From a virus: 38,402 bases of DNA. Of the stretch, positions 9,861-38,014 are shown one piece after another. The stretch spans positions 1 to 38,402 of the IMG/VR virus record IMGVR_UViG_3300021364_000064; one strand, 5' to 3'. The stretch's first letter is position 1. Each line of letters starts with the position of its first letter. Below the pieces are notes generated by a model. The model was not told the origin of the DNA. It was given only the letters and a program-made list of their open reading frames with translations, and did not search any database. The translations under genes and the position numbers were made by a program.

Positions 9861-10131
9861 TGAGGAAGCAATCCTCAATGAGTTGAAGGAATATATTTCT
9901 TCCACTTACCACCAGCACTATTCTGCTGGCACTGACAAAATCCAAACCCTTGACCTTATTGAAGCATGTGGTGACGGTGAAGCATTTTGTAGAAGCAACA
10001 TCTTGAAGTATGCTTCTCGGTATGATAAGAAGGGCACTGCCCGCCGAGACCTTATCAAGATTCTCCACTATGCAGTCCTGCTACTGCACTTCAATGACAA
10101 AAATGCACAACGTGAAGATTACAACCAATGA
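9835..10131 (+). CDS. DUF3310-type protein
   Basis: 98 residues. The C-terminal half, EAFCRSNILKYASRYDKK followed by GTARRDLIKILHYAVLLLHF, fits the DUF3310 pattern (F-x-x-GN-x-x-KYx-x-R-x-x-KG-x-x-DL-x-K-x-x-x-Y) found in many phages near nucleotide and replication genes. The function is unknown; the label nucleotide kinase seen in databases is not supported by any P-loop here. Its stop overlaps the gp45 start (ATGA), so it is coupled to the clamp. Confidence 0.65.
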   Translation: MNPHQWKYNEEAILNELKEYISSTYHQHYSAGTDKIQTLDLIEACGDGEAFCRSNILKYASRYDKKGTARRDLIKILHYAVLLLHFNDKNAQREDYNQ

Positions 10132-10790
10132 GTACTATTGCCCTTTCAAAGACCACAATCGAAATCCTCAAAAATTTCTCTACAATCAATACATCGATTG
10201 TCATTAAAGAGGGCAACGTCCTTCGCACCATCAGTAATGAAGAAAACATTCTCGCTACTGCTAAGGTGGAAGAAACGTTTCCACAAACGTTTGCTATCTA
10301 CGACTTGACTCAATTCCTTGCAGGTCTCTCCCTGTTTGAAAATCCAAGTCTGGTATTTGACAATGATGATTATCTGATTATCAAGTCTGGTCGCTCTCGT
10401 GTGAAATACTATTTCAGTGACCCTGAGATTACTCTCAAGACAGCACCAGACAAGAAGGTAAACTATCCTGGGTCTGATGTTACCTTCTCACTTTATGCTA
10501 GTGACCTGTCGTCACTCAACAAAGCATCCAACGTTTACAAACTTCCCGACTTTGTAATCGATACCGACGATGAGATTCTTCTTTCTGTCTGTGACCGTGA
10601 GAATGACACTTCACACGTCTATGATGTAACAGTCAAAGGTGAGTTTGAAGGTAATCATAATCTCCACCTCAAGGTTGAGAATCTGCGATTGATGCAAGGA
10701 GATTATAATGTTGGTGCTTCTAAACATCTCATTACTGAGTGGAAGCATACTGACCTTGACCTCACCTATTACATCGCATTAGAGCCTTGA
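10128..10790 (+). CDS. 45: gp45, DNA polymerase sliding clamp
   Basis: 220 residues; T4 gp45 has 228. It is the trimeric clamp that tethers gp43 and, in T4, also activates late transcription with gp55 and gp33. The N-terminal strand/helix SKTTIEILKNFSTINTSIVIKEGN, the FAIYDLTQFLAGLSLF interior helix and the DYLIIKSGRSRVKYYFSDP repeat match the gp45 fold. It is the second gene after the 9781 promoter and overlaps both neighbours. It is the likely partner of the C-terminal peptides on gp43 (NLMSFF) and on the nuclease at 12070. Confidence 0.93.
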   Translation: MSTIALSKTTIEILKNFSTINTSIVIKEGNVLRTISNEENILATAKVEETFPQTFAIYDLTQFLAGLSLFENPSLVFDNDDYLIIKSGRSRVKYYFSDPEITLKTAPDKKVNYPGSDVTFSLYASDLSSLNKASNVYKLPDFVIDTDDEILLSVCDRENDTSHVYDVTVKGEFEGNHNLHLKVENLRLMQGDYNVGASKHLITEWKHTDLDLTYYIALEP

Positions 10791-11128
10791 AACACATCCT
10801 ATTTACTTTGAAGGGTTGCCCATTTACACTGTGTGATGATGAAGGTTTCATTAGAAACATGCTTGTGAATGCAGCAACTCTTGCACAGAGTACTCTGTTG
10901 GATGTAACATCGCATAAGTTTGAGCCCTTTGGTGTGACTGCTATTGCTCTCCTCGCTGAGAGTCATATCAGCATTCACACTTGGCCAGACAAGTGCATGG
11001 CAGTTTGTGATGTCTTTACCTGTGGAGACCATACAATCCCCGAATCTGCGGTGCGATATATGTATGATATGATGCAGGCAAGTGACATGGTTGCTAACCA
11101 ATTTATTAGACCTTTAGATGATGAATGA
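10787..11128 (+). CDS. speD: SpeD, S-adenosylmethionine decarboxylase proenzyme
   Basis: 113 residues, the usual size of the small bacterial class. The enzyme makes decarboxylated SAM for polyamine synthesis and matures by self-cleavage to a pyruvoyl group. The maturation site AESHISIHTWPD is complete, with cleavage expected between Glu58 and Ser59, and the conserved CDVFTCG follows at 74-80. Translation starts at TTG 10787, whose bases overlap the gp45 stop (TTGA); no in-frame ATG fits. Its place between gp45 and gp44 means polyamine supply is co-expressed with the replisome. speD is known from marine cyanophages. Confidence 0.9.
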   Translation: MKHILFTLKGCPFTLCDDEGFIRNMLVNAATLAQSTLLDVTSHKFEPFGVTAIALLAESHISIHTWPDKCMAVCDVFTCGDHTIPESAVRYMYDMMQASDMVANQFIRPLDDE

Positions 11129-12062
11129 TTTTTTGTGGGTGGAGAAGTATCGTCCTCATACGATTGAGGATTGTATTCTCCCAACTTCGATGAAGAAAGT
11201 GTTTACTGGATTTGTAGAGCAGGGTGAGATTGCTAATCTCATGCTCTCTGGTCCTCCTGGTGTCGGTAAGACTACCGTTGCTAAAGCACTGTGTGAAGAG
11301 TTAGGTCTAAGTTATATTGTTATCAATGGTAGTGACGAAGGTCGTTTCCTTGATACCATTCGCACGAAAGTCCGTAACTTTGCTACTACCAAATCTTTGG
11401 TTGGTGGCGGTGCTCACAAGGTGGTGATTATTGACGAGGCAGACAATACCACGCATGACGTGCAACTGTCGCTTCGTACTTTTGTGGAGGAGTATCACAC
11501 TAACTGCCGATTTATTTTTACCTGTAATTTTATCAATAAGATTATTGAGCCACTGCACTCTCGCTGCACAGTGGTTGACTTCCGAATTAAACAGGCAGAG
11601 CAGCAGAAACTCCAAGCGCAATTCTTCGACCGCTTGAAGGGCATCCTAGACGCCTCTGGCGTGACCTATGAGGATAAGGTCGTGGTCAAACTCATCCAGC
11701 GTTACTATCCTGATTGGCGTCGTCTCCTAAATGAGGCACAGCGTCACTCTGCAGGCGGGTCTCTGGATGCTGCTGTGCTGTGTGATATTGCTGATGTCAA
11801 CATTGAAGAATTGATTCGTGCAATGAAGAATAAAGAGTTTACTACCGTGCGTAAGTGGGTGGTAAACAATATGGATAGTGACCCTAATATCATCATGCGT
11901 AAAGTGTATGATAATCTGGTCAACTATATTGAGGGGTCTACCATTCCTCCTGCTGTCCTGGTCCTTGCTAAGTATCAGTATCAAGTTGCTTTTGTTGCTG
12001 ACCAGGAAATCAATCTGCTTGCATGTCTTACCGAATTGATGGTAGAATGTAAATTTAAATAA
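11121..12062 (+). CDS. 44: gp44, clamp-loader ATPase subunit
   Basis: 313 residues from ATG 11121 (ATG 11118 is also possible); T4 gp44 has 319. It is the AAA+ subunit that opens gp45 and loads it at primer ends with gp62. FLWVEKYRP is the typical clamp-loader start. Walker A SGPPGVGKTT, Walker B VVIIDEADN, sensor 1 FIFTCNF and the arginine-finger segment LHSRC are all present. The start overlaps the speD stop. gp62, its normal neighbour, is displaced about 1.5 kb by the inserted nuclease and methylase. Confidence 0.95.
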   Translation: MNDFLWVEKYRPHTIEDCILPTSMKKVFTGFVEQGEIANLMLSGPPGVGKTTVAKALCEELGLSYIVINGSDEGRFLDTIRTKVRNFATTKSLVGGGAHKVVIIDEADNTTHDVQLSLRTFVEEYHTNCRFIFTCNFINKIIEPLHSRCTVVDFRIKQAEQQKLQAQFFDRLKGILDASGVTYEDKVVVKLIQRYYPDWRRLLNEAQRHSAGGSLDAAVLCDIADVNIEELIRAMKNKEFTTVRKWVVNNMDSDPNIIMRKVYDNLVNYIEGSTIPPAVLVLAKYQYQVAFVADQEINLLACLTELMVECKFK

Positions 12063-12069
12063 TATAATA

Positions 12070-12708
12070 ATGTCTAGATCACCAAATGCACAAAGAGTAG
12101 TTCCATGTATGCCTCCTTTGCTGGAGGAAGAAACTAAAAATGCTGATGCAGGAGACACATCATTTAATGGGACTGCGTGTGAGAATATTGTCAAATCATA
12201 TTTTCTCACACAAAGAATTAACATTGCAGAACCTCATGTTGATGATGGCGTGGACCTTCTCATCGAGAAACCAGGGGAAGGTTGGAAGAGGGGTCAAGTA
12301 AAGAAAGTGGTTTACCAATATAAACTTGACTGGGGAATGAGAGAAAAGAAAGGTGTAGAAGTTTATCGCTCTCGATATAATTTCAATTTCCAGAATAGTG
12401 GTAAATCTAAACAAAGGAAACAGAGGGGTCCAGAAGATTATGATTATTTTTATCATGTTCTTCTGACACCATATCGCCAACTAATTTGGGAAACGCCTTC
12501 TAATGTAATTCCTTTACGCAAAGATGGGACCTTCATCATGGGGAAAAATGTGTGTTTGGATAGGAATAATTGGATACGAAAAAAAGCAGAGATTGATTAT
12601 AGAAAACTTTTGATGTATAGTAGATACGATCCTATTATTTTTCAAACGTATCCTGATTTCTTTTTGAAACCAAAGCAGCAATCTTTACATGAATTTTTTG
12701 ATTATTGA
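12070..12708 (+). CDS. PD-(D/E)XK-like nuclease with clamp-binding-like C-terminus
   Basis: 212 residues, no named family recognised. The arrangement GTACENIVKSYF (Glu38), DDGVDLLI (Asp62) and RGQVKK (Gln76-Val-Lys78) fits an E ... D ... QxK nuclease core. A basic segment (GKSKQRKQRG, 111-120) and DYDYFYHVLLTP follow. The extreme C-terminus, QQSLHEFFDY, has the spacing of a PIP-box or clamp-binding peptide (Q-x-x-L-x-x-F-F) and resembles the C-terminal clamp peptides of T4-type polymerases. It lies directly before a Dam-like methylase, inside the otherwise conserved gp44-gp62 interval, so a restriction-like or replication-linked DNA-processing role is possible. Nuclease activity is inference. 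Confidence 0.55.
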   Translation: MSRSPNAQRVVPCMPPLLEEETKNADAGDTSFNGTACENIVKSYFLTQRINIAEPHVDDGVDLLIEKPGEGWKRGQVKKVVYQYKLDWGMREKKGVEVYRSRYNFNFQNSGKSKQRKQRGPEDYDYFYHVLLTPYRQLIWETPSNVIPLRKDGTFIMGKNVCLDRNNWIRKKAEIDYRKLLMYSRYDPIIFQTYPDFFLKPKQQSLHEFFDY

Positions 12709-12709
12709 T

Positions 12710-13591
12710 ATGAAATCTTTGAAGACCCCTTTACGTTACCCAGGTGGAAAGTCTCGTGCCTGTGTAAAACTGGCAGAGTATATGCCAGACATGAAACAAT
12801 ACAAAGAGTTTCGGGAGCCATTCCTTGGTGGTGGTAGTGTCGCACTATACATGACCAAGCAGTATCCTCATTTAGACATCTGGGTGAATGATTTGTATGG
12901 ACCTCTCTATAACTTCTGGAAAGAGTTGCAGCACAATGGTCAGGCACTTGCTGAGCAACTGAAGCAATATAAGATTGATAACCCAACTCCTGACACTGCC
13001 AAAAATCTTTTTCTAGAGTCAAAGGAGATTGTCAATGAAGATTCCGTTTCCAATTTACTTCGTGCTTGTGCTTTCTACGTTGTTAACAAGTGCTCTTTTT
13101 CTGGTCTCACTGAGTCCTCATCCTTTAGCAGGCAGGCATCAGACTCTAACTTCTCAATGCGAGGAATTGAAAAACTACCAGAATACTCAGAATTAATTAA
13201 AGATTGGAGAATTACAAATGCTAGCTACCAAGAGCTCCTCACCGACGATAGGCGAGTCTTCACTTATCTCGACCCCCCATATGATATTAGAGATAACCTC
13301 TATGGACGGCGGGGCGATATGCACAAGTCCTTCGACCATGATACCTTTGCTGTTGATTGTGATTGTTTCGTCGGTCCTCAACTTGTATCTTATAACTCGT
13401 CTCAACTTATTCGTGAGAGGTTTGATGGGTGGAAAGTCGGAGAATTCCAACACACCTACACAATGAGGTCTGTAGGTGACTACATGAAAGACCAACATGA
13501 AAGAAAAGAATTAGTATTGTTTAATTATGACCGCACCAACTCTCTCACAGATTCTCTACACAATCAATCAGTCGAAGAAGCATCTGTATGA
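12710..13591 (+). CDS. dam: Dam-like N6-adenine DNA methyltransferase (D12 class)
   Basis: 293 residues from ATG 12710, two bases after the nuclease stop; in-frame ATG 12689 lies inside that gene and is less likely. It should transfer a methyl group from SAM to adenine in DNA. RYPGGKSRA (9-17) and EPFLGGGSVAL form the SAM site, and catalytic motif DPPY is at 188-191. NKCSFSGLTESS and the end KELVLFNYD are also typical of D12 methylases. The target sequence cannot be read from the protein. The last 22 codons overlap gp62 in another frame, suggesting the gene was inserted here and its tail extended. Confidence 0.9.
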   Translation: MKSLKTPLRYPGGKSRACVKLAEYMPDMKQYKEFREPFLGGGSVALYMTKQYPHLDIWVNDLYGPLYNFWKELQHNGQALAEQLKQYKIDNPTPDTAKNLFLESKEIVNEDSVSNLLRACAFYVVNKCSFSGLTESSSFSRQASDSNFSMRGIEKLPEYSELIKDWRITNASYQELLTDDRRVFTYLDPPYDIRDNLYGRRGDMHKSFDHDTFAVDCDCFVGPQLVSYNSSQLIRERFDGWKVGEFQHTYTMRSVGDYMKDQHERKELVLFNYDRTNSLTDSLHNQSVEEASV

Positions 13592-13910
13592 AGAAGAGGA
13601 TGCCAAGTCATACCCACCTTTTATTGTAAACAAATGCCTGTCTGGTTTTCTGGACACGGTGTTGTATGCAAATGAGATGAATATGCACTCGCATCTAGAT
13701 AAGAAGATGCAATATGACTTTTTTATAAATAGTATCACGCCAAGGAAGAGATTCTCTCCTTGGGAGAAGAAGTCTTCAATTGATTGTCTTGATGCAGTCA
13801 AAGAATATTATGGGTATAGCACCGATAAGGCTTTGCAAGCGTTGAGGATTTTAAACAATGAGCAACTTGAAGAGATTAAACGCTTAGTAAATAAAGGTGG
13901 TAGACGATGA
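13527..13910 (+). CDS. 62: gp62, clamp-loader small subunit
   Basis: 127 residues; T4 gp62 is longer at 187. It is the non-ATPase subunit of the gp44/62 clamp loader. Recognition rests on the position just before regA and on a cyanophage-type pattern: PPFIVNKCLSGFLDTVLYANEMN, RKRFSPWEKK, and YGYSTDKALQALRIL. The ATG at 13527 gives a 65-base overlap with the methylase; a start inside the overlap cannot be excluded, although the residues TLSQILYTINQSKK look like part of the protein. A TATAAATA element lies inside it, and its stop overlaps regA. Confidence 0.8.
   Translation: MTAPTLSQILYTINQSKKHLYEEEDAKSYPPFIVNKCLSGFLDTVLYANEMNMHSHLDKKMQYDFFINSITPRKRFSPWEKKSSIDCLDAVKEYYGYSTDKALQALRILNNEQLEEIKRLVNKGGRR
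13724..13731 (+). promoter_or_regulatory. TATAAATA late-promoter motif inside gp62
   Basis: An exact T4-type late promoter box lies in the middle of the gp62 coding region. It would give a transcript starting near 13737-13739, just before a strong hairpin, and covering regA. The motif is exact, but the coding context makes a chance match possible. Confidence 0.4.
13740..13763 (+). other. Hairpin downstream of the internal late motif
   Basis: CCAAGGA at the left pairs with TCCTTGG at the right, then a one-base bulge and AGAG/CTCT-type pairing close a three-base loop. It lies 8 bases after the TATAAATA box, so it would form the 5' end of a late transcript. It also falls in gp62 codons (TPRKRFSPW). 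Confidence 0.35.
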
Positions 13911-15370: not shown

Positions 15371-15629
15371 TTCATATGTAGTCGCACAAGTCGAAGAGAT
15401 TGTTGCTGACTACGGTATGCCAAATTGCAAATTAATTAATCCTTACGAAATCTTCCCAGGGGTTGTGCTTAAACCTTGGCCGTGCTATACTGACCAGGAA
15501 GAGGTGCTTTTCTCGTCTGACAACATTCTGACTATCGTAAGTCCAAACCCAGACGTTGTAAAAGCATACATCGATATGGTCCCCACTGTGATTGACGAAG
15601 AGGTTGATGAAGTTTTACAAGAACGTTGA
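15333..15629 (+). CDS. Sm-like (LSm/Hfq-fold) protein, paralog 3
   Basis: 98 residues from ATG 15333 (ATG 15336 is equally usable), with GGAGGG at 15325-15330. It shows LLLKNDSYVVAQVEEIV, CKLINPYEIFPG, then LKPWPCYTDQEEVLFSSDNILTIVSP, the same order of elements as the other two Sm-like proteins. It overlaps paralog 2 at its start and gp43 at its end (23 bases), so the three are probably coupled in translation. Two different Sm subunits made together could form a mixed ring. There is no direct evidence for that. Confidence 0.55.
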   Translation: MMQSLKLLLLKNDSYVVAQVEEIVADYGMPNCKLINPYEIFPGVVLKPWPCYTDQEEVLFSSDNILTIVSPNPDVVKAYIDMVPTVIDEEVDEVLQER

Positions 15630-18099
15630 GCAAGTTGGAAACAAGATTCTCGTCCGTGCCCATGAGAATGGCACAGACGTGCAATACAGGGAGGACTTCA
15701 AGCCCTCCCTTTTTGTTTCTTCAAAAAAAGATGTAACTGATTACAAAAGTCTCGACGGTCGCCCTTTGCGTCGTGTGATGCCTGGCAGCATTGCTGACTG
15801 TCGTCAGTTTGTGCAACAGTATGCTGACATTGATGAGTTTGAGATTCATGGAAATACTAGATACTTATATCAATACATTAACGAAAAGTATCCAGGTGAT
15901 GAAATCAAATTCGATAGCTCTCTCATCCGTGTCTTCACGTTGGATATTGAAACGGCAGCAGAGAATGGATTTCCTGATATCCAATCCGCTGACCAGGAGA
16001 TTCTGCTTATTTCTTTGCGCGATTCTTTTACAAATCGTATCACTGTCTGGGGAAGTAAAAGTTTCAAGAATGAAGACCGCCAGGTTGATTACATTCACTG
16101 CGATGATGAGACGAAACTCTTATCATGCTTCCTTGCCTGGTGGCAAGAAAACTTCCCAGATGTAATTACTGGTTGGAATGTCCAACTATTCGATATCCCA
16201 TATATCTGCCGCCGCGTGACTCGTATACTTGGTGACAAACATACCAAGATGCTGTCACCATGGAAGATGGTTTCTGACCGTGAGATTTATATCAAGGGAC
16301 GCAAGCAGATTGCCTATGACATCCCTGGCATCTCCTGTTTAGATTACCTTGAGTTGTATAAGAAGTTTACTTATACAAACCAGGAATCATATCGCCTTGA
16401 CCACATTGCCTTTGTGGAGTTGGAGCAGAAGAAACTTGACCACTCTGAGTTTGATACCTTTAAGGAATTCTATACTAATGACTGGCACAAGTTTGTTGAA
16501 TACAACATCCATGACGTGCGTCTGGTAGACCGTCTTGACGACAAGATGAAATTGCTGGAGTTGGCATTCACCATGGCATATGATGCCAAGGTAAACTTTG
16601 AGGATGTTTATTCTCAGGTCCGCATGTGGGATAACATTATCTTCATCTATCTTGACAAGCAGAAGATTGCTATTCCCCCCAAGCATCAGTCTCATAAAGA
16701 TGCTCAGTATGCTGGTGCCTATGTGAAGGAGCCTACGCCTGGTATGTATGACTGGGTGGTATCGTTTGACCTTAACTCTCTATACCCTCACCTCATCATG
16801 CAATACAACCTGTCCCCAGAGACGCTCCTGCCCCGCCGTAGCAGCGTCAACGTGGACATGCTGCTGGACAAGGCACACGACACCAGCGACCTCGTAGGGG
16901 AGACTCTGTGTGCTAATGGCACGCACTACACCACAAAGGAGCAAGGATTCCTGCCAAAACTGATGGAGAAAATCTATCAGGACCGCACAATTTATAAGAA
17001 GAAGATGCTTGCTGCCAAGCAGCAATATGAGCAAACCCCCACAATTGAATTGAAGAAGGAGATTTCTCGTTGTAACAATATTCAGATGGCAAGAAAGATT
17101 CAACTTAACAGTGCCTATGGGGCGATTGGCAATGAGCACTTCCGATATTACAAGTTGGAAATTGCCGAAGCAATCACTCTTTCTGGTCAACTCTCTATCC
17201 GTTGGATTGAGATGAAGATGAATGAATATCTAAATAAACTCTTGTCAACCCAAAAGGAGGATTATGTCATTGCATCTGACACTGACTCAATCTATCTTAA
17301 CCTTGGACCTCTTGTTAATAAATTTTTTAGTGCTAAGTCTGGCGACAAAGCAGCGATTGTGGGAATACTTGACAAGATCTGCCAAGAGAAACTGGAGCCA
17401 TTTATCGAATCGTCATATCAGGAGCTGGCGAATTACCTTGCGGCGTATGACCAAAAGATGAAAATGAAGCGTGAGAATATCGCTGACCGTGGTATCTGGA
17501 CTGCCAAGAAGCGATACATTCTCAACGTGTGGGACAGCGAGGGTGTCCGATATTCTGAGCCCAAGATGAAAATCATGGGACTTGAAACTGCTAGGTCATC
17601 TACACCTGCATACTTTCGTGACAAACTGTATCAGGCATTCAAGATTATCGTCACGCAAACGAATGATGATATCATTCATTTTATTGATGAAATCAAGACA
17701 GATACTCGCGACCAAAACTATATGGACATCGCTTTTCCTCGTGGTGTCAATGGTCTTGATAAGTATCGTAATGGCACTGACATCTATGCTAAAGGCACAC
17801 CTATCCACGTCAGAGGTGCTCTCCTTTACAATCACTATGTCCGCCGAAACAAAGTGGAGAATAAGTATCCCGTCATTCAGGAAGGTGAGAAAATCAAATT
17901 CTTATATCTCAAGACACCCAATCCTATTGGCGAGAATGTAATCTCTTTCTTCCAACAACTCCCTAAGGAATTTAACCTTGAGAAGTATGTTGATTACCAA
18001 CTACAGTTTGAGAAGTCTTTTCTCGAACCGTTGAAAAATGTGCTAGAATCTATTGGATGGCAGCACGAAAAACGTGGCAATTTGATGAGTTTCTTTTGA
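15607..18099 (+). CDS. 43: gp43, family B replicative DNA polymerase
   Basis: 830 residues from ATG 15607; T4 gp43 has 898. An in-frame TTG at 15592 would add five residues. Exonuclease motifs: TLDIETAAENG (Asp113, Glu115), GWNVQLFDIPY and YNIHDVRLVD. Polymerase motifs: FDLNSLYPHLIMQYNLSPET, KIQLNSAYGAIGN and SDTDSIYLN (Asp558, Asp560), then KKRYIL. All catalytic residues appear intact, so it should polymerise and proofread. The C-terminus NLMSFF resembles the clamp-binding tail of T4-type polymerases. A terminator-like hairpin is encoded at codons 28-36. uvsX follows after six bases. Confidence 0.97.
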   Translation: MKFYKNVEQVGNKILVRAHENGTDVQYREDFKPSLFVSSKKDVTDYKSLDGRPLRRVMPGSIADCRQFVQQYADIDEFEIHGNTRYLYQYINEKYPGDEIKFDSSLIRVFTLDIETAAENGFPDIQSADQEILLISLRDSFTNRITVWGSKSFKNEDRQVDYIHCDDETKLLSCFLAWWQENFPDVITGWNVQLFDIPYICRRVTRILGDKHTKMLSPWKMVSDREIYIKGRKQIAYDIPGISCLDYLELYKKFTYTNQESYRLDHIAFVELEQKKLDHSEFDTFKEFYTNDWHKFVEYNIHDVRLVDRLDDKMKLLELAFTMAYDAKVNFEDVYSQVRMWDNIIFIYLDKQKIAIPPKHQSHKDAQYAGAYVKEPTPGMYDWVVSFDLNSLYPHLIMQYNLSPETLLPRRSSVNVDMLLDKAHDTSDLVGETLCANGTHYTTKEQGFLPKLMEKIYQDRTIYKKKMLAAKQQYEQTPTIELKKEISRCNNIQMARKIQLNSAYGAIGNEHFRYYKLEIAEAITLSGQLSIRWIEMKMNEYLNKLLSTQKEDYVIASDTDSIYLNLGPLVNKFFSAKSGDKAAIVGILDKICQEKLEPFIESSYQELANYLAAYDQKMKMKRENIADRGIWTAKKRYILNVWDSEGVRYSEPKMKIMGLETARSSTPAYFRDKLYQAFKIIVTQTNDDIIHFIDEIKTDTRDQNYMDIAFPRGVNGLDKYRNGTDIYAKGTPIHVRGALLYNHYVRRNKVENKYPVIQEGEKIKFLYLKTPNPIGENVISFFQQLPKEFNLEKYVDYQLQFEKSFLEPLKNVLESIGWQHEKRGNLMSFF
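15688..15714 (+). terminator. Terminator-like hairpin inside the 5' end of gp43
   Basis: AGGGAGG (15688-15694) pairs perfectly with CCTCCCT (15704-15710) around a nine-base loop and runs into five T (15710-15714). It is about 80 bases into the coding region. It could attenuate gp43 transcription when ribosomes are absent or slow. It is equally the codons for RED-FKPSLF, so function is unproven. Confidence 0.45.
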
Positions 18100-32885: not shown

Positions 32886-33218
32886 ATGCGACCGCAATCT
32901 GCGAAAGCAAAAGGAAGAAGATTGCAGCAGTGGGTGAGAGAGCAGTTGATTGAAAAACTGAATGTCCACCCCGAAGATATTGAGTCACGCAGCATGGGTG
33001 CTGGTGGTGAAGACCTCATCATGGCACGGGCAGCTAGACAAAAGTTTCCTCATAGTATAGAATGTAAGAATGTAGAGAAACTCAATATCTGGGATGCCTA
33101 CGAGCAATCTGCTGCTAACTGTGGAGACTATGAGCCGATAGTTGTTATCAAAAAGAATGGTAAAAAACCTTTGGTTGTAGTTGATGCAGAATACTATATT
33201 CAAATGTTTAATAAATGA
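32886..33218 (+). CDS. PD-(D/E)XK endonuclease, resolvase-like
   Basis: 110 residues. After a basic start (AKAKGRRLQQWVREQL) come SRSMGAGGEDLIMA, with the catalytic Asp, and FPHSIECKN, the ExK element, then NIWDAYEQS, an arrangement typical of small Holliday-junction-resolvase-type nucleases. T4 uses the unrelated gp49 for this job, so this could be its functional substitute. Expression control by a late promoter within a hairpin is also what T4 gene 49 uses. The substrate is inference. Confidence 0.75.
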   Translation: MRPQSAKAKGRRLQQWVREQLIEKLNVHPEDIESRSMGAGGEDLIMARAARQKFPHSIECKNVEKLNIWDAYEQSAANCGDYEPIVVIKKNGKKPLVVVDAEYYIQMFNK

Positions 33219-37555: not shown

Positions 37556-38014
37556 TTAAATTAGTGTCCCATGTTGTCTACGAATTTCTCTCAACTCCTC
37601 AAAGTTTTTTTGCTTAGTGCCGCCATCGTATGCCCAAGCATAACCCTCTTCAATCATTTGTTCGTTGAGGGACACATCTCCGTCCCCAATGTATAACCAA
37701 CCAAGAAGACGGCCATATTTGCCGACGCCACCAACAAGTTCAGTGCGGATAATAAGATCATCGTCACCAACCACAGCACCTTCCAGTTTTTCTTTGAGCC
37801 AGTTGGTTGCGTCATAACCCAATGCCTTCTCTTCAAGGTCGCGTGTTCGTTTCTCTGGTGTATCTACTCCTGCAACTCTGACCCTCTCTTTTTTGTAGAG
37901 GTCAAAACCCAAGTCAATCGTGACATCAATTGTATCCCCATCAAGGACTCTGTTGATTTCTATCACTCGGAAGTTGTAACAACTCTTCCTGCTGGGCGGT
38001 GTCATTGCTCCCAT
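37556..38014 (-). CDS. Staphylococcal-nuclease-type thermonuclease
   Basis: 152 residues from ATG 38014; ATG 38005 (starting MTPPS) is a close alternative. The SNase domain is complete: RVLDGDTIDVTIDLGF, KERVRVAGVDTPEKRT with the catalytic Arg and Asp, and GKYGRLLGWL with the second Arg. Such enzymes cut DNA and RNA in a calcium-dependent way. No signal peptide is seen, so it would act in the cytoplasm, perhaps in host DNA degradation. Its 5' end overlaps the small membrane gene by 74 bases. Confidence 0.85.
   Translation of the reverse strand: MGAMTPPSRKSCYNFRVIEINRVLDGDTIDVTIDLGFDLYKKERVRVAGVDTPEKRTRDLEEKALGYDATNWLKEKLEGAVVGDDDLIIRTELVGGVGKYGRLLGWLYIGDGDVSLNEQMIEEGYAWAYDGGTKQKNFEELREIRRQHGTLI

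What the first reader, a model, noticed from the sequence alone, without database searches (positions are those of the whole stretch)
12070..12708. A nuclease-like protein that ends in a sliding-clamp-binding-like peptide
The protein has an E38 ... D62 ... Q76xK78 arrangement suggesting a PD-(D/E)XK fold, and its last ten residues are QQSLHEFFDY, a full Q-x-x-L-x-x-F-F clamp-binding pattern at the extreme C-terminus. T4-type gp43, gp55 and gp33 bind gp45 through C-terminal peptides, and this phage's gp43 ends in NLMSFF. The gene lies one gene away from the clamp-loader subunit gp44. A nuclease tethered to the replication clamp could act on new DNA, for example mismatch-like repair, superinfection exclusion or host-DNA cutting. 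I know of no described system of this form in T4-like phages.
Basis: partly seen in the sequence, partly recalled or inferred. Interest (0 to 1): 0.85.

Follow-up and report, generated by a model that had tools for sequence, protein, structure and literature searches.

The report
Cyanophage nuclease with a clamp-binding tail
Marine T4-like viruses of cyanobacteria carry a mobile DNA-cutting enzyme whose last few amino acids match the hook their own DNA polymerase uses to grip the replication clamp, suggesting the cutter is carried to freshly copied DNA.

Summary
Window 12070-12708 (+) encodes a 212-aa protein ending QQSLHEFFDY. AlphaFold2 plus Foldseek give a PD-(D/E)XK core closest to the homing endonuclease I-Ssp6803I, with E38, D62, Q76 and K78 invariant in 28 aligned homologs. 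Short phage relatives pass the Pfam PDDEXK_5 cut-off and bridge the family to it. All 40 distinct homologs inside the gp45/gp44/Dam/gp62 cluster keep a C-terminal [T/S/N][L/V/I]xx[F/L][F/L] peptide, although the residues between and the downstream gene vary. Two of three copies outside the cluster lack it. The peptide matches the gp43 tail of the same phages; in two near-whole genomes, gp43 and this protein are the only recognisable genes ending that way. The phage's gp45 models as a T4-type clamp.

The Dam neighbour is background (421 phage records against two genomes with this gene). The gene is AT-rich, occupies several slots in one cluster and is swapped allele-for-allele, yet is under purifying selection. 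Best reading: a mobile PD-(D/E)XK endonuclease that rides the phage clamp, probably homing or competitive; clamp-linked repair (NucS-like) is the main rival. Clamp-tethered nucleases are known (T4 RNase H, Hjc, NucS), so this is a new variant. Binding and cleavage are untested.

The parts
12070..12708 (+). PD-(D/E)XK nuclease-like protein (NUC), 212 aa, phrog_5018 family
12181..12183 (+). E38 codon, first acidic active-site position (helix 34-47)
   Evidence: invariant in 28 homologs; helix in the model; Q in L115 and in I-Ssp6803I
12253..12255 (+). D62 codon, catalytic Asp
   Evidence: aligns with the D..QxK of I-Ssp6803I through the pVp-1 relative
12295..12303 (+). Q76-V77-K78 codons, the QxK half of the active site
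12676..12705 (+). C-terminal clamp-binding-like peptide QQSLHEFFDY (core S205-L206-x-x-F209-F210)
   Evidence: short helix 206-210 in the model
10128..10790 (+). gp45 sliding clamp, presumed partner
   Evidence: phrog_223 E 8e-75; model matches T4 and RB69 gp45 at TM 0.88-0.89
10787..11128 (+). S-adenosylmethionine decarboxylase-like gene between gp45 and gp44
   Evidence: phrog_3125
11118..12062 (+). gp44 clamp-loader ATPase
   Evidence: Pfam AAA and Gp44_lid
12710..13591 (+). Dam-type N6-adenine methyltransferase; background neighbour. True start probably 12710, not 12689
   Evidence: Pfam MethyltransfD12; present in 421 phage records; sequence
13527..13910 (+). gp62 clamp-loader subunit
   Evidence: phrog_225
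15592..18099 (+). gp43 DNA polymerase; tail RGNLMSFF, internal reference for the clamp peptide

Best explanation
NUC is a PD-(D/E)XK endonuclease of the I-Ssp6803I-like (PDDEXK_5) lineage that has gained a C-terminal extension ending in a gp43-type gp45-binding peptide. The peptide docks on the phage sliding clamp and brings the nuclease to clamp-loaded, newly replicated DNA, where it cleaves or nicks. The gene behaves as a mobile cassette of T4-like marine phages. The most likely role is a free-standing homing or competitive endonuclease that acts on replicating phage DNA during co-infection, with the breaks repaired from the nuclease-bearing genome. Shown by computation: fold, active site, conserved tail, shared tail with gp43, clamp in the same cluster, mobility, purifying selection. 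Inferred: binding to gp45, cleavage, target, and homing or competition as the benefit.
For: Fold and lineage: AF2 pLDDT 81.6, pTM 0.78; Foldseek top PDB hits are the four chains of I-Ssp6803I 2ost (best E 4e-4, probability 1.00), then Hjc; bridging phrog_5018 members pass PF11645 (39.4 and 27.5 bits, cut-off 26.1), and every NUC matches phrog_5018. Tail: 40 of 40 distinct in-cluster members; core positions conserved while +1 and +2 vary, with many synonymous codons. The same pattern ends gp43 in the same phages (NLMSFF, NTLESFFT, VNLELFFS, ASLEFLFA, GTLEAFF, ASLEWLFG) and in T4 gp43 (ASLDFLFG) and gp55 (SLDFLYE). In G001 and P-RSM1 only gp43 and NUC among recognisable genes end so. The gp45 model matches T4/RB69 gp45, including 6drt and 1b77, entries titled as gp45 with partner peptides. 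T4 gp43/gp55/gp33 tails are interchangeable (PMC2988020), which supports transferable function. Mobility: several slots in one cluster; low GC3; weak distance correlation with gp44 (r 0.26); allele swap with edges at the NUC ends between P-RSM1 and MbCM1 types (dS 1.9 against 0.3-0.6 in most flanking genes); two cultured genomes only; purifying selection dN/dS 0.08-0.34. Homing genes cluster near essential phage genes (PMC10448857).
Against: No binding or cleavage data. NUC itself does not pass the PDDEXK_5 cut-off. No target site or clean empty-site allele was found. In cultured cyanophages a putative homing endonuclease group is mostly degraded (PMC3037559), whereas in-cluster NUC copies keep the catalytic residues, which could equally mean a useful phage function. 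Polar residues around the core are invariant although insertion slots differ, which argues for one shared substrate rather than slot-specific targets. A clamp tail on a homing enzyme has no precedent that I found.
Confidence: 0.5

Rival explanations
1. A clamp-recruited repair endonuclease for the phage's own replication, working like NucS/EndoMS or PCNA-linked Hjc: it cuts mismatched or branched DNA behind the polymerase, with repair by UvsX, gp46/47 and UvsW recombination.
For: Conserved clamp tail; residence in the clamp and clamp-loader cluster; intact catalytic residues and purifying selection; invariant polar residues across slots; functional precedent NucS with a C-terminal PIP (PMC8228993) and Hjc-PCNA (PMC7776575).
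Against: Patchy: 2 cultured genomes against 421 records with Dam. AT-rich and swapped as a cassette. The window has its own RusA-like resolvase at 32886-33218. No NucS relative in the Foldseek top list.
Confidence: 0.3
2. Restriction-modification-like pair with the neighbouring Dam: NUC cuts unmethylated host or rival DNA and Dam protects the phage.
For: Adjacent to Dam in several orders, including the window.
Against: Dam sits in 421 phage records, nearly all cyanophages, but NUC in only 4 records. Some NUC loci have no Dam between gp44 and gp62 (L014, L018, L104). NUC and Dam distances are not correlated (r 0.12).
Confidence: 0.08
3. The tail is not a clamp ligand but part of the fold or a dimer contact, or chance similarity.
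For: No binding test; tail pLDDT is only about 56-64; a few tails are weak (NLSTLLS, TLELIL).
Against: Conserved core with variable neighbours, shared with gp43, rare elsewhere in the same genomes, lost in two out-of-cluster copies; short relatives lack the extension.
Confidence: 0.1

Closest known systems
I-Ssp6803I, PD-(D/E)XK homing endonuclease (PDDEXK_5, PF11645)
   Same: Closest solved fold; D..QxK active site; small stand-alone nuclease; relatives sporadic in phages, some beside tRNA genes
   Different: NUC is free-standing, not in an intron as far as seen, has about 80 extra C-terminal residues and a clamp-type tail, and falls below the PF11645 cut-off itself
NucS/EndoMS, clamp-tethered mismatch endonuclease
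   Same: Nuclease whose C-terminal peptide binds the replication clamp (PMC8228993)
   Different: Cellular enzyme of Archaea and Actinobacteria; no sequence match or top-50 fold match to it was seen; the clamp here is phage gp45
Archaeal Hjc Holliday junction resolvase
   Same: PD-(D/E)XK fold, second-best PDB match; interacts with PCNA (PMC7776575)
   Different: Weak fold E-values (0.02 and above); the window already has a RusA-like resolvase
T4 gp43, gp55 and gp33 gp45-binding C-terminal peptides
   Same: Same core [S/T/N]Lxx[F/L][F/L/Y]; T4 gp43 ends ASLDFLFG
   Different: Those proteins are a polymerase and transcription factors, not PD-(D/E)XK nucleases
T4 RNase H (FEN-1 family)
   Same: Phage nuclease stimulated by gp45 (PMC3012046)
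   Different: Different fold and family; its PIP motif is N-terminal

Membership tests
PD-(D/E)XK nuclease superfamily | alpha-beta PD-(D/E)XK core | tested here: met
   AF2 model and Foldseek to I-Ssp6803I and Hjc
PD-(D/E)XK nuclease superfamily | Conserved acidic/QxK active site | tested here: met
   E38, D62, Q76, K78 invariant in 28 homologs; D62, Q76, K78 shared with short relatives
PD-(D/E)XK nuclease superfamily | Metal-dependent DNA cleavage | not testable with these tools
   Needs an enzyme assay
PDDEXK_5 / I-Ssp6803I family | Match to PF11645 above the curated cut-off | tested here: not met
   NUC members reach only E 0.064 at best; only the bridging phrog_5018 relatives pass. Filed as distant lineage, not as a member
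Homing endonuclease | Cleaves an allele lacking the gene and is copied into it | not testable with these tools
   Only indirect signs: varied slots, allele swap, low GC3
gp45 clamp client | C-terminal gp43-like peptide | tested here: met
gp45 clamp client | Physical binding to gp45 | not testable with these tools
   Complex prediction and pull-down not available
NucS/EndoMS | Sequence or fold relation to NucS | tested here: not met
   No Pfam or NCBIfam match; not in the Foldseek top 50
Hjc resolvase | Relation to the Hjc family | tested here: inconclusive
   Fold similarity only, E 0.02-0.4 for most chains; no Pfam Hjc match
Restriction-modification pair with Dam | Specific co-occurrence of nuclease and methylase | tested here: not met
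   Dam in 421 records, NUC in 4; some NUC loci lack a Dam between gp44 and gp62

The most novel reading that the evidence does not exclude
A selfish, horizontally moving phage endonuclease that has captured a replisome address tag: a clamp-dependent homing or competitor-cutting enzyme that acts only on DNA being replicated, whose tag is kept inside the clamp cluster and lost outside it.
Probability: 0.35. Interest if true: 0.8.

Novelty: new variant of a known kind. Interest (0 to 1): 0.62.

Why it matters
Few proteins besides the polymerase, late transcription factors, ligase and RNase H are known to use the T4-type clamp. A PD-(D/E)XK nuclease with the polymerase's own tail would show that a mobile or competitive nuclease can be steered to replicating DNA through the clamp. 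It could also be a first phage counterpart of NucS-type clamp-coupled cutting. It is directly testable with a 10-residue peptide, and nature provides tail-less copies as controls.

Tried and rejected
Dam partnership: rejected as background. Direct sequence search of the PDB with NUC and with family profiles: no meaningful hit. NCBIfam: no hit for NUC. GTDB genome scan by back-translated patterns: no relative. Empty-site comparison: the nearest NUC-free cultured relatives are only about 71% identical over the region, too far for a clean empty site. Role as sole Holliday resolvase: unlikely, a RusA-like gene is present. The possibility that the tail is conserved only as a start signal for the next gene: rejected, because the downstream gene differs (Dam, gp44, gp62) while the peptide stays. 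A PADLOC scan failed on a bad coordinate and was not repeated. Literature searches on homing endonucleases with clamp binding gave nothing relevant.

Full report
What is there. The ORF at 12070-12708 (+) encodes 212 residues ending QQSLHEFFDY, with E38, D62 and Q76xK78 as described. It begins 7 bases after gp44 and ends just before a Dam-type methylase; gp62, RegA and gp43 follow. The window is a fragment of a T4-like phage with gp45, gp44, gp62, RegA, UvsX, UvsW, gp46 and replicative-helicase and primase genes, recorded as a 38.4 kb virus contig.

Homologs. Cultured or reference relatives are only P-RSM1 and MbCM1. IMG/VR scans gave 7, 42 and 67 loci. A pattern scan of GTDB genomes found none. 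All 28 aligned members match phrog_5018, a family of unknown function that also holds short proteins of Vibrio phage pVp-1 and Phormidium phage Pf-WMP3.

Fold. The AF2 model has pLDDT 81.6 and pTM 0.78. The only PDB match below E 0.001 is I-Ssp6803I; its other chains and archaeal Hjc follow. NUC is below the PF11645 cut-off, but pVp-1 and Pf-WMP3 proteins pass it, so the relation is by a bridge. E38, D62, Q76 and K78 are invariant in 28 homologs. D62, Q76 and K78 persist in the short relatives and line up with the D..QxK of I-Ssp6803I through pVp-1, a weak pairwise match. Cleavage is not shown.

Tail. I extracted 44 distinct full-length family members. Of these, 40 lie beside clamp-cluster genes and all carry a terminal [T/S/N][L/V/I]xx[F/L/I][F/L or similar] peptide. 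Across 42 tails, position -1 is T, S or N in all, position 0 is L, V or I in 41, position +3 is F in 36, and positions +1 and +2 vary widely; Leu is encoded by several different codons. One row (L089) is probably mis-anchored. One further copy (L024) has the tail but too little flank to place. Three copies lie outside the cluster: L034 keeps VNIFDFM, while L038 and L115 stop just before the peptide. By hand calculation the Fisher probability is 3/903 = 0.0033, not corrected for shared ancestry. L115 lies about 57 kb from gp44 in the same contig and has Q in place of E38. L034 and L038 each lie directly downstream of an SF2-helicase gene. The downstream gene differs between loci, so the peptide is not kept merely as a ribosome-binding site.

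The clamp. gp45 matches phrog_223 (E 8e-75), and its model (pLDDT 89.2) matches T4 and RB69 gp45 at TM 0.88-0.89. gp43 in the same phages ends NLMSFF, NTLESFFT, VNLELFFS, ASLEFLFA, GTLEAFF or ASLEWLFG, the same core as the NUC tails; T4 gp43 ends ASLDFLFG and T4 gp55 has SLDFLYE near its end. Among ORFs of G001 (148.8 kb) and P-RSM1 (177 kb), gp43 and NUC are the only recognisable genes with such an end; the other hits are short unassigned ORFs. T4 gp43, gp55 and gp33 tails can be swapped without loss of clamp-activated transcription (PMC2988020), and the PIP consensus Qxxhxxaa has been applied to gp43 and RNase H (PMC3012046).

Context and mobility. The gene lies between gp45 and gp44, after the decarboxylase gene, between gp44 and Dam, between Dam and gp62, or between gp44 and gp62 where no Dam was found between them. 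Its GC3 is usually far below that of gp44, gp45 and cobS. Its distances correlate weakly with gp44 (r 0.26) and gp45 (r 0.35) and not with Dam (r 0.12). Between P-RSM1 and MbCM1 types identity falls from about 0.8-0.95 in Dam to 0.41-0.74 in NUC and returns to about 0.8 or more in gp62, with the edges at the ends of the gene; dS is 1.9 in NUC against 0.3-0.6 in most neighbours. Both alleles keep a tail. dN/dS in compared pairs is 0.08-0.34. Dam is in 421 phage records, so adjacency to Dam carries little weight.

Interpretation. The computations support a nuclease fold, an intact active site, a clamp-type tail and a mobile but selected gene. They do not show binding, cutting or purpose. The lineage, mobility and setting next to essential genes fit a homing or competitive endonuclease (compare PMC10448857, PMC3037559). 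The tail, conserved polar core and location fit a replication-linked repair enzyme like NucS (PMC8228993) or PCNA-linked Hjc (PMC7776575). I favour the first modestly. A clamp-tethered nuclease is not new as such; a PD-(D/E)XK mobile nuclease with the gp43-type tail in T4-like phages is, as far as I could find.

Limits. Many loci are short metagenome fragments. The NUC tree is poorly resolved. The tail's model confidence is low. The literature library is partial. 'Recognisable gene' in the genome-wide tail scan is my judgement over mechanical ORFs.

Noticed in passing
L002 (JN371769.1 129416-129895): The MbCM1 homolog is annotated as 'Dam DNA adenine methylase' although it is the nuclease, and it is cut by an in-frame TAA. 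Environmental copies (L040, L046) are intact.
   Followed up: partly
window 12689-12710: The first ATG of the Dam ORF (12689) lies inside the nuclease gene; the likely true start is ATG at 12710, one base after the nuclease stop codon.
   Followed up: no
window 32886-33218: Small RusA-like Holliday junction resolvase (phrog_244, E 9e-21; weak PDDEXK_15 match), a second nuclease in the same replication region.
   Followed up: partly
L034 162-2083; L038 3851-5645: Out-of-cluster copies of the nuclease sit directly after an SF2 helicase (ResIII/DEAD), a possible helicase-nuclease pair.
   Followed up: partly
P-RSM1 gp55 (113497-113970) and gp33 (58938-59228): The annotated gp55 and gp33 of this cyanophage lack the gp43-like clamp tail, unlike T4 gp55, so clamp use in late transcription may differ here.
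   Followed up: no
Streptomyces phages Navo, Persimmon, WhereRU, Bartholomune; Vibrio phage VPG01: Short phrog_5018-type nucleases lie next to tRNA-Ser genes, as expected of tRNA-targeting mobile endonucleases.
   Followed up: no
window 37556-38014 (-): Staphylococcal-nuclease-like protein (PF00565, E 4.5e-13).
   Followed up: no
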